Translations under genes and position numbers: made by a program | The notes under the pieces: generated by a model | The model's database searches: none | What the model saw: only the letters and a program-made list of their open reading frames with translations | What the model was told of the DNA's origin: nothing | In this document: piece by piece, positions 19,513 to 21,513 of the stretch | How positions within the stretch are numbered: position 1 is the stretch's first letter | Layout of the letters: the number at the start of each line of letters is the position of its first letter | Assembly (NCBI GenBank): GCA_016793875.1 | Contig: JAEULG010000087.1 | Coordinates: 1-36,987, forward strand | Reading direction: 5' to 3' | DNA from: Rhodospirillales bacterium | Lineage (GTDB): Bacteria > Pseudomonadota > Alphaproteobacteria > Rhodospirillales > Defluviicoccaceae | DNA length: 36,987 nucleotides

Positions 19513-20523
19513 TTACCGCGACTTGCTGTCGAGCAGGCCGAGCTGGCGGAAGCTGGTGTGGCCGCGGCGCGAGATGATCAGGTGGTCATGCAGGACGACG
19601 CCGACCCGGTCGAGCGCATCGCGCACCATCCGCGTCATCTCGATGTCCGGCTTCGACGGCTGCGGGTGGTTGCTGGGGTGGTTGTGGACCATCACCAGCG
19701 CCGAGGCATCGAGGGCCAGCGCCCGCTTGACCACCTCGCGGGGATAGACCGGCGTGTGGTCGATGGAGCCTTCGTGCTGCTTCTCGTCGGCGATGAGCAC
19801 GTTGCGGCGATCGAGGAACAGCAGCCGGAACTGCTCGACCATGCGGTGCGCCATCTGCGCGCGCAGGTAGGCGATCAGCTTGTCCCAGTTATCGAAGGCC
19901 GGCTGCTCGGTCAGATCCTCGCGCACCAGCCGCGCGGCGAACACCCGCAGGGCCTTGAACAGGGTGACGACGAAGTGGTTCATCCGCCCGATCTCGGAGA
20001 GCTGCTCGACCGGGGCGTTGACGACACCGGCGAGGCTGCCGAACCGGTCGAGCAGTTCCTTGGCGATCGGCTTGGTGTCGATCTTCGGGATGGCGAAGAA
20101 CAGCAGCATCTCCAGCAGCTCGTAGTCCGGAAGCGCCTCGTCAGCGCCGCTGAGGAAGCGCTCGCGCAGCCGCTGCCGGTGGCCCCAGTAGTGCGGACGG
20201 TTGGATCCCGGCGGCAGTACTTCGGCCGCCGCCGCGTCGGAAAGGCCGCCCAGCGCCGCGGCAGGGCACGCCCGGCTTTGCAACGCCTGCCGCGGGTCGG
20301 TCCCGTCGAAGATCCAGACCCGACTGATCCGGTCCCAGCGGCCGCCGAGTTCGCGCAGCAGGTGTCGGTAGGGATGGGTCTCCCCCTTGACCGTGTAGAT
20401 GGACGTCCCGCCGGTCGACGTCCGCACCGATACCAACAATCCCATGCTTCTGAAGTCTGTCACACTGGCGCCGGTGGCGGGATTGGCGAGGGCGTCCGCG
20501 GCGTCCTCCGATCGTTCGCTCAT
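19513..20523 (-). CDS. radC: RadC-family JAB/MPN protein with N-terminal extra domain
   Basis: 336 residues from ATG 20523, with GGAGG upstream; the ATG overlaps the nuclease stop (ATGA), so translation is probably coupled. The RadC core has a helix-hairpin-helix-like region (about 105-190) and a C-terminal JAB domain. Its metal motif is H280-x-H282-P with D293 (VHNHPS to PSKPD). Cellular function of RadC is unsettled despite its name; some members have been linked to replication or genome maintenance. The unusual part is residues about 20-85, with H-P-Y-R-H-L-L-R-E-L-G-G-R-W and V-W-I-F. This resembles the small W-x(5)-W/F modules found on plasmid and helicase proteins. Genomic RadC normally lacks it. 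Confidence 0.88.
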   Translation of the reverse strand: MSERSEDAADALANPATGASVTDFRSMGLLVSVRTSTGGTSIYTVKGETHPYRHLLRELGGRWDRISRVWIFDGTDPRQALQSRACPAAALGGLSDAAAAEVLPPGSNRPHYWGHRQRLRERFLSGADEALPDYELLEMLLFFAIPKIDTKPIAKELLDRFGSLAGVVNAPVEQLSEIGRMNHFVVTLFKALRVFAARLVREDLTEQPAFDNWDKLIAYLRAQMAHRMVEQFRLLFLDRRNVLIADEKQHEGSIDHTPVYPREVVKRALALDASALVMVHNHPSNHPQPSKPDIEMTRMVRDALDRVGVVLHDHLIISRRGHTSFRQLGLLDSKSR

Positions 20524-21077
20524 CGCTGCGCCTCCGTGCTCGACTCGCGGGCATGCTTGCGCCATTCCCAGGGCTCGACGAACGTGCCCTGCCAGAGACC
20601 GGCGCCGACAGCGCGGGCCTCCGCTTCCTCCGGGACGTAGTCCCGGCCGTAGCGGCGGTAGGCCAGAGCCCAGCCGTCACGCACCATCATCGCGTTCAGA
20701 TCGTCCTCGCCCGCGAAGCAGACGGCGACCAGCCGTCCGTAGCGGTCGCGCTTTTCCCCTTTACAGGTGATTATCTTGCCGGCGGTAGCGCCGGCCAGCA
20801 GGCGCTTGGCGTTCTGCCCACAGGCATAGCCGATGCCGGCGACGCTGCACGACTGCCTGGTCTCGGGCGCATCGATGCCTTGCAGGCGTACCCGTTCACC
20901 TGCGACCTGCAAGGTATCGCCGTCGATGACGTGCGCCTCGCCGATGACGTCAGCCCGGACGAATGTGGTAGGAAATGGCAATGTTGCAAGAAAAAAGGCT
21001 GCAAAAAGGTAATGAGCACCCCGCCGCCAGACGGGCGACAGGGGGGAGGACGGCCAACAGCAAGAGACGCGTAACAT
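20520..21077 (-). CDS. Staphylococcal-nuclease-like (thermonuclease) secreted nuclease
   Basis: 185 residues from ATG 21077. The open frame reaches 21242, but the extra N-terminus is not protein-like. A signal peptide or anchor (YLFAAFFLATLPFPTTFVRA) ends near residue 42. The SNase fold follows with the catalytic residues R64 and E72 (VRLQGIDAPE) and R115 (DRYGR), equivalent to R35, E43 and R87 of the staphylococcal enzyme, and the Ca2+-binding D-G-D-T. It should cut DNA or RNA by Ca2+-dependent phosphodiester hydrolysis in the periplasm or outside. Four cysteines in the core suggest disulfides. The last four bases overlap radC, giving a two-gene operon. An SNase-RadC pair is unexpected because one is exported and the other cytoplasmic. 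Confidence 0.85.
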   Translation of the reverse strand: MLRVSCCWPSSPLSPVWRRGAHYLFAAFFLATLPFPTTFVRADVIGEAHVIDGDTLQVAGERVRLQGIDAPETRQSCSVAGIGYACGQNAKRLLAGATAGKIITCKGEKRDRYGRLVAVCFAGEDDLNAMMVRDGWALAYRRYGRDYVPEEAEARAVGAGLWQGTFVEPWEWRKHARESSTEAQR

Positions 21078-21513
21078 CCAGAAGCACCCCGGGTCGGCAA
21101 ACGTGTTCCTGCACCGGCTGCCTCGTGATCGAGACCGCCAGTCGACGCACGATATCTTGTTGGCGAGTACCCATTTCCCCCATGAGGCCGTCACACAACA
21201 GCCTCCATACAAGTAACTATAGCGCGAATCGGGGTAACACACCAGCGGTACGCGAACGGGGTGGCAACGGCCTTGACGTCGCTGGCGGGAGGGAGCACAT
21301 CGCCCGGAGACGATGGGCGTCGCGCGGCAGCTGCCGATGGCCGGCGGCTGGGTGCCGCCGGGAGTTTTTCGGGCGGCACCTGCCGATGCGGTCAGGGGGC
21401 GGCGGCGGGACAGGCCGGTCGCGGAACGCGGCCGATGCTCCCTCCGGAGACGACGCCGCTGGCCGCCGCTGGCACGCCTGACAAAGCTTTCGGCCGGGCA
21501 CGGGGAGATTCAG
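21078..21513. other. Divergent intergenic region, nuclease/alcohol dehydrogenase
   Basis: No convincing gene in these 436 bases. On the minus strand TATAGT (21221-21216) is a good -10 candidate for the nuclease-radC operon, but no clear -35 is present. The plus-strand side leads into a GGGGAGA ribosome site for the alcohol dehydrogenase. Open frames here are low-quality extensions of the flanking genes. Confidence 0.3.

What the first reader, a model, noticed from the sequence alone, without database searches (positions are those of the whole stretch)
19513..21077. Exported SNase overlapping a RadC with an extra N-terminal module
The nuclease stop and radC start overlap by 4 bases, indicating co-translation. 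RadC carries a 65-residue N-terminal module with an L-G-G-R-W...W-I-F pattern otherwise familiar from plasmid-type proteins. RadC function is unknown, and pairing with an exported nuclease hints at a role in DNA uptake, defence or acquired DNA.
Basis: partly seen in the sequence, partly recalled or inferred. Interest (0 to 1): 0.5.

Follow-up and report, generated by a model that had tools for sequence, protein, structure and literature searches.

The report
Second RadC with DNA-binding-like N-terminal module
In one family of bacteria a spare copy of the poorly understood protein RadC carries an extra front module of a type also found on DNA-handling proteins, and its gene often sits directly behind a gene for an exported DNA-cutting enzyme, which makes RadC's unknown job easier to test.

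Summary
SNase (21077-20520, minus strand) and RadC (20523-19513, minus strand) overlap by ATGA, and RadC has a ~65-residue N-terminal module. Both parts recur. The module is on RadC in 8 of 11 genomes of the window's family (named relatives: Defluviicoccus and other Rhodospirillales MAGs) and in 17 loci of other alphaproteobacterial families. Of these 17, 11 show map upstream, as at the ordinary sfsA-map-radC locus, and none shows SNase. SNase lies directly upstream in 6 of the 8 family copies; of the other two, one is cut by a contig end and one lacks it. I saw no such pair outside the family, in capped lists. The window RadC belongs to a family-specific second RadC group (support 100/99), with HPSN at its metal-site loop in 14 of 14 against HPSG in 48 of 48 others. 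The module, predicted beta-beta-alpha-beta-beta-alpha, matches by profile a C-terminal module of ERF-type annealing proteins (92.7%; shuffles at most 19%) and, more weakly, DUF5710 (58.8%; at most 6.7%). Best reading: a nucleic-acid-binding module on a duplicated, specialised RadC, co-expressed with an exported nuclease. Its role is not shown. New variant of a known kind.

The parts
19513..20523 (-). second RadC (336 aa): N-terminal module, linker, HhH-type region, JAB/JAMM domain
   Evidence: family-specific group
20260..20454 (-). N-terminal module, RadC residues 24-88; predicted beta-beta-alpha-beta-beta-alpha; signature VxGxT...R...R..GG.WD.....W.F
19990..20187 (-). UPF0758_N / helix-hairpin-helix-like region, residues 113-178 (below Pfam cut-off: 25.5 against 27.1 bits)
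19537..19893 (-). RadC JAB domain, residues 211-329
   Evidence: Foldseek match to RadC 2qlc, E 2.2e-10
19645..19686 (-). JAMM metal-site motif HNHPSNHPQPSKPD (residues 280-293), with the HPSN loop of this group
20520..21077 (-). staphylococcal-nuclease-type protein, exported by its sequence features
20589..20894 (-). SNase domain; four cysteines at offsets 27, 36, 55 and 70 from the DGDT segment, same in all six linked SNases
20520..20523 (-). ATGA overlap of SNase stop and RadC start
21216..21237 (-). promoter-like site TTACCCCGATTCGCGCTATAGT; perhaps a degenerate form of an operator-like palindrome next to a -10-like box seen upstream of several relatives
   Evidence: the window copy does not fit the strict pattern

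Best explanation
Shown by sequence: this is a second RadC of one bacterial family. It carries a small module ahead of the ordinary HhH-plus-JAMM RadC body and is encoded in a tight two-gene unit behind an SNase with export features in 6 of the 8 family genomes that have the module. Inferred: the module is a nucleic-acid-binding adaptor, because related modules sit on an ERF single-strand-annealing protein, a conjugative ArdC/Toprim protein and (weaker match) a strawberry-notch-type helicase. It would bring the RadC metal site to DNA (most likely single-stranded, branched or end-bearing DNA) in the cytoplasm. Inferred: the SNase cuts DNA in the periplasm or outside, and the shared message makes both when the cell meets or takes in foreign or released DNA, the cytoplasmic RadC then acting on DNA or nucleotides. 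The last step, that the two act on the same DNA, is the weakest.
For: Module on RadC in 8 of 11 family genomes, in 10 further loci of the order (297 genomes searched) and 7 of the class (385 searched). Predicted fold at mean pLDDT 81.8. Profile match to a C-terminal module of ERF-type proteins (five rows), 92.7% over 50 columns, against at most 19.0% in 200 column shuffles; to DUF5710 (five rows), 58.8% over 28 columns, against at most 6.7%. Hosts of the module: an ERF protein (6.3e-33; one of six such frames scanned), an ArdcN/MPTase/Toprim_3 protein, a Helicase_C_4 protein, and a protein with a below-cut-off DUF4062 match. SNase-RadC pair in 6 of 8 family module copies with touching or near-touching genes. 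Second-RadC group 100/99, HPSN loop 14 of 14 against 0 of 48, JAMM motif intact in 62 of 62. SNase segments DGDT, RL..ID.PE and D.YGR align with staphylococcal nuclease (that these are catalytic is recalled). Published context arguments that RadC-type JAB domains may be nucleases: passages of PMC5512222 and PMC3482391.
Against: No activity of any RadC was reported in the passages I read. A 2025 review of DinG-like proteins (passages, PMC11981726) finds the RadC-like domain fused to a helicase structurally like metalloproteases and not nucleases, and calls RadC's function apparently unrelated to repair. The module has no confident structural match: best Z 4.6, to translation factor eIF1, and Foldseek E at least 0.42. 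One family genome has module-RadC without SNase (G006), and in three (G001, G009, G010) I found only module-less second RadCs, not next to SNase. The linked SNases are not a resolved clade, and similar four-cysteine SNases occur unlinked. On the RadC tree the module-bearing RadCs do not form one group, so the module was gained or lost more than once, or is old. The two proteins would lie in different compartments. Outside the family no SNase was seen beside module-RadC (0 of 17).
Confidence: 0.4

Rival explanations
1. Operon of convenience: the exported SNase is a scavenging or matrix-remodelling nuclease, RadC does an unrelated job inside the cell, and the two share a promoter without acting together.
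For: Different compartments; module-RadC without SNase in G006 and in the 17 loci of other families; unlinked SNases of the same type.
Against: The pair persists in six genomes with partly differing further neighbours, with touching or near-touching genes.
Confidence: 0.35
2. Competence operon: SNase trims incoming DNA and RadC handles the imported single strand during natural transformation.
For: radC is described as induced in competence in other bacteria (PMC6237807 passage); ComEC in 9 of 11 family genomes; module shared with an ERF annealing protein.
Against: The same passage says radC appears dispensable for transformation in three species. ComEC rings in 10 of 14 control genomes, E. coli included. 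No pair seen outside the family.
Confidence: 0.12
3. Defence or counter-defence unit, or a piece of a conjugative element left in the chromosome.
For: Module family also on a conjugative-type ArdC/Toprim protein; [quoted passage not shown]
Against: No plasmid or phage record covers 80% of the protein. A second, non-map RadC (module or third type) was found in 11 of 11 family genomes (10 of the 11 hold rows of this group in the tree or module copies). The module-bearing RadC has map upstream in 11 of 17 loci elsewhere. PADLOC gives only general JAB and SNc matches.
Confidence: 0.08
4. The module is only a lineage-specific N-terminal extension of RadC without binding function.
For: No Pfam family reaches its cut-off; paralogues without it persist.
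Against: Invariant G, T, GG, W and W and two nearly invariant arginines over 23 sequences; confident fold; recurrence on other DNA proteins.
Confidence: 0.05

Closest known systems
RadC family (TIGR00608, PF04002, UPF0758), usual sfsA-map-radC copy
   Same: HhH-like region plus JAB/JAMM domain; motif HxHP-x6-S-x2-D intact
   Different: extra N-terminal module (shared by some map-linked RadCs of other families), HPSN instead of HPSG, second copy away from map, next to SNase
RadC domains in larger proteins: polyvalent proteins of conjugative elements and RadC-like DinG (passages of PMC5512222 and PMC11981726)
   Same: RadC-type JAB domain combined with nucleic-acid-related domains
   Different: there the partner is ArdC-N, a helicase and others; here a small N-terminal module on an otherwise ordinary RadC
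DUF5710 (PF18974), seen here twice in a conjugative-type ArdC/MPTase/Toprim protein (L058)
   Same: core R/K..K..GA.WD.....W and a profile match over 28 columns
   Different: window module lies below Pfam's cut-off (12.2 against 26.5), is longer at its N-terminal side, and sits on RadC
C-terminal module of ERF-type proteins (L056, L057, L059-L061, L063; Pfam ERF tested for L060 only, the others alike by eye)
   Same: profile match over 50 columns, 92.7%, five of the six used
   Different: C-terminal on an annealing protein rather than N-terminal on RadC
Secreted thermonucleases (PF00565)
   Same: SNase domain and export features; secreted Nuc of Neisseria degrades extracellular DNA (PMC12221376 passage)
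   Different: linkage to radC; four cysteines conserved in the six linked proteins
HARP / XPB damage-recognition type domains
   Same: beta-beta-alpha-beta-beta arrangement and an R.(Y/W)D...W.F-like core (recalled); weak match to archaeal XPB 2fz4, Z 3.8, rmsd 2.3 over 47 residues
   Different: Z tied with many unrelated rows; no sequence match found

Membership tests
RadC family | curated HMM score | tested here: met
   TIGR00608 198.3 (cut-off 133.85), NF000642 198.1 (180), PF04002 133.9 (22.1)
RadC family | JAMM metal-site motif | tested here: met
   intact in 62 of 62 rows; fold match 2qlc E 2.2e-10
RadC family | UPF0758 N-terminal HhH region | tested here: inconclusive
   25.5 bits against a cut-off of 27.1
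SNase family PF00565 | curated HMM score and catalytic segments | tested here: met
   54.6 bits against 21; DGDT, RL..ID.PE and D.YGR align with 1ihz (their catalytic role is recalled)
DUF5710 PF18974 | Pfam gathering score | tested here: not met
   12.2 bits against 26.5 for the window; no hit for four other family modules; distant kinship by profile only
HARP domain | sequence or fold match | tested here: inconclusive
   no HARP hit in Pfam at E 10; fold search of the module not decisive
Natural competence gene set | effect on transformation | not testable with these tools
   needs mutants
Plasmid or phage gene | same architecture on a plasmid or phage record | tested here: not met
   0 of 2,253 matching plasmid records and 0 of 43 matching phage records cover 80% of the protein in one place

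The most novel reading that the evidence does not exclude
The second RadC group is a neofunctionalised nucleic-acid enzyme: module for substrate capture, altered metal-site loop. With the exported SNase it would form a dedicated pathway for handling extracellular DNA, under its own operator (CCC-N4/5-GGG beside the -10 box) shared by SNase-linked and unlinked members of the group.
Probability: 0.15. Interest if true: 0.7.

Novelty: new variant of a known kind. Interest (0 to 1): 0.42.

Why it matters
RadC is widespread, yet its function is disputed (passages of PMC5512222, PMC6237807 and PMC11981726): nuclease-like by context, metalloprotease-like by fold. A natural fusion to a module shared with an annealing protein and conjugative-type proteins, and a duplicated form with a changed metal-site loop, give direct and cheap tests of whether RadC acts on nucleic acid and on which structure.

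Tried and rejected
SOS control: no GTTC-N7-GTTC, GAAC-N7-GAAC or GAAC-N7-GTTC box, Pho-like box or CtrA site in the 360-440 bases examined upstream of SNase in the six loci (the consensus forms are recalled).

Regulon search: the exact core ACCCRAWYGGGGT gave 18 sites in 11 genomes (none in the window's own) against 4 for the reversed control. Only 3 of the 18 lie before this operon or the G006 radC; the rest gave no coherent gene set, several being inside coding frames. Six of 13 upstream regions of the second-RadC group carry the stricter pattern (Markov shuffles: mean 0.16, at most 2 in 2,000) and 0 of 8 map-linked radC regions do. The pattern was drawn partly from these same regions, G002 was left out as a near-copy of G005, and 7 of 13 do not fit, the window and the G003 pair among them. 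I leave it as a lead.

Fold search of the module: nothing decisive. Best rows are eIF1, topoisomerase pieces and others, all Z 4.6 or less; XPB 2fz4 at 3.8; HARP domains were not among the 50 rows listed. PDB sequence search with the module profile gave only chance-like hits (best E 0.013, 16 residues of a lyase). PHROGs gave nothing convincing for the module (best E 0.15) and a DNA-repair family for the RadC body (8.2e-31).

Obligate co-inheritance of SNase and module-RadC: not supported. The SNase tree does not resolve the linked ones as a clade. A first SNase tree showed the five linked rows it held as one group, but a faulty filter had dropped 13 of 21 loci, so I discard it. One search used 20 of the 21 (L120, a partial match, left out).

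Literature: in the listings (open-licence PMC only) I saw no title or abstract on this RadC architecture or on a RadC-SNase pair. Passages were read of PMC5512222, PMC12221376, PMC6237807, PMC11981726 and PMC3482391; no paper was read whole.

Full report
What is there. On the minus strand, an SNase gene (21077-20520) is followed by radC (20523-19513) with an ATGA overlap. RadC passes the curated RadC cut-offs, and its best structural match is RadC 2qlc. SNase passes Pfam's SNase cut-off, and its DGDT, RL..ID.PE and D.YGR segments align with staphylococcal nuclease. A hydrophobic N-terminal stretch and four cysteines at identical offsets in all six linked SNases fit export and disulfides (inference).

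Whose genome. The window is contig C125 of a 3.43-Mb assembly. Named relatives carrying the module are Defluviicoccus and other Rhodospirillales MAGs: seven loci, whose contig lengths equal those of family genomes G002-G008.

Recurrence of the module. Eight of 11 family genomes have RadC with the module (matches start at residues 1-26). In the order, 27 of 297 genomes match the module profile: these 8; 10 further loci (families f26 and f28), of which 9 read on into a RadC body and one (L045) meets the contig end after the module, behind sfsA and map; one genome with fragments only; and 8 with weak hits in other proteins. In the class, 12 of 385 match: the window, 7 RadC loci (f89, f96, f161) and 4 weak hits in other proteins. 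At phylum level 4 of 299 match: the window, one f96 genome (G361) already seen in the class search, a protein with a below-cut-off DUF4062 match, and one weak hit that was not identified. Of the 29 RadC loci L122-L150, the best-scoring ones and two of them family copies, one carries it (L128, G035). So it is a minority architecture inside Alphaproteobacteria, as far as these samples go.

Recurrence of the pair. SNase lies directly upstream in 6 of 8 family copies (G000, G002, G003, G004, G005, G007), with gaps of -4, +4, +13, +2, +4 and -4 bases. G008 is cut by a contig end, and G006 has no SNase at that place. Further neighbours differ in part: a valS-like gene upstream in G002 and G005, other genes in G004 and G007 (which share a downstream fasciclin-like gene), and a downstream lipoprotein and short-chain dehydrogenase shared by the window and G003 (my reading of the translations). 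G002 and G005 are near-identical, so the independent number is about five. Outside the family the module-RadC has map upstream in 11 of 17 loci (8 of 10 in the order, 3 of 7 in the class; E at most 1e-5). The rest are short contigs or have other neighbours. None of the 17 has an SNase match to the window protein within the up to 1.5 kb held. In 120 genomes of the order I compared the listed RadC and SNase places by eye: six family genomes have the pair within 2 kb. Among the 100 other genomes with RadC I saw none; the nearest was about 3.7 kb apart on opposite strands (G020). The weakest SNase matches were not listed, so pairs with those are not excluded.

A family-specific second RadC. All 9 family genomes have two or more RadC matches. 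Of the 100 other genomes with RadC 6 have two, and in 4 of those at least one match is partial. Nine of 11 family genomes also show a sfsA-map-radC copy, and one search found just one module per family genome that has it, in the second copy, so the map-linked ones lack it. A tree of 62 RadC proteins, drawn with a midpoint root, puts the family's module copies together with module-less, longer-branched copies ('third type') on one side of a branch, support 100/99, apart from the map-linked family copies, which form their own group, 98/98. The group carries HPSN at the metal-site loop in 14 of 14 rows, the others HPSG in 48 of 48; the JAMM motif is intact in 62 of 62. Module-bearing RadCs of other families do not join the family's module copies on this tree and are themselves scattered (4 changes of that label on the best tree). 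So either the module is old and often lost, or it was gained more than once. The tree does not decide. Within the family the simplest history is an early duplication, with loss of the module in the third type.

What the module is. It is about 65 residues, predicted with mean pLDDT 81.8 as beta-beta-alpha-beta-beta-alpha, and again in the full-length model. Invariant columns are L, G, T, G, G, W and W, with two nearly invariant arginines, over 23 sequences. No Pfam model reaches its cut-off; DUF5710 gives 12.2 against 26.5 bits for the window and nothing for four other family modules. Profile comparison links it to a C-terminal module of ERF-type proteins (92.7%, 50 columns; five rows, one of which was confirmed as ERF by Pfam) and to DUF5710 (58.8%, 28 columns; five rows). 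Two hundred column shuffles of each reach at most 19.0% and 6.7%. Other bearers are an ArdcN/MPTase/Toprim protein (its KfrB match is below cut-off), a strawberry-notch-type helicase protein (module E 1.6e-4) and the DUF4062-like protein (module E 5.2e-10). A guess of nucleic-acid binding follows from this company; no binding was tested. Structure searches were not decisive.

How it may work. The order of certainty is: co-translation likely (shown geometry); exported SNase likely (sequence features); module as nucleic-acid adaptor plausible; common task of the two proteins speculative. I give the combined reading 0.4, and a mere shared promoter 0.35.

Known and new. RadC and SNase are known families. 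[quoted passage not shown] a 2012 paper also holds the nuclease idea (passages of PMC5512222 and PMC3482391). A 2025 review of DinG-like proteins instead finds the RadC-like domain topologically like metalloproteases and not nucleases (passages of PMC11981726). The present architecture favours the nucleic-acid side by context only. I found no report of it in the listings named under Tried and rejected. I rate it a new variant of a known kind.

Noticed in passing
window 21216-21237; L034 5390; L030 5257; L035; L171, L172, L175: Operator-like palindrome CCC-N4/5-GGG next to a -10-like box upstream of some SNase-radC units and some unlinked third-type radC genes (6 of 13 regions); the window copy is degenerate and does not fit the pattern.
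   Followed up: partly
L169, L174, L175: Third-type radC genes (no module, no SNase) lie beside a gene for an outer-membrane protein that looks FadL-like by eye, in three genomes.
   Followed up: no
L024/L029 and L026/L028 (G003): Two radC copies of G003 are split over frames; transposase-like genes lie near one of them.
   Followed up: no
L056, L057, L059-L061, L063: ERF-type annealing proteins of the same order carry a C-terminal module related to the RadC one (Pfam ERF tested for L060).
   Followed up: partly
L099: A protein with a below-cut-off DUF4062 match ends in the same kind of module, perhaps a sensor or defence protein with a nucleic-acid-binding tail.
   Followed up: partly
L118, L121: SNase-like proteins in G008 and G007 whose DGDT and YGR segments are altered, possibly inactive relatives.
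   Followed up: no
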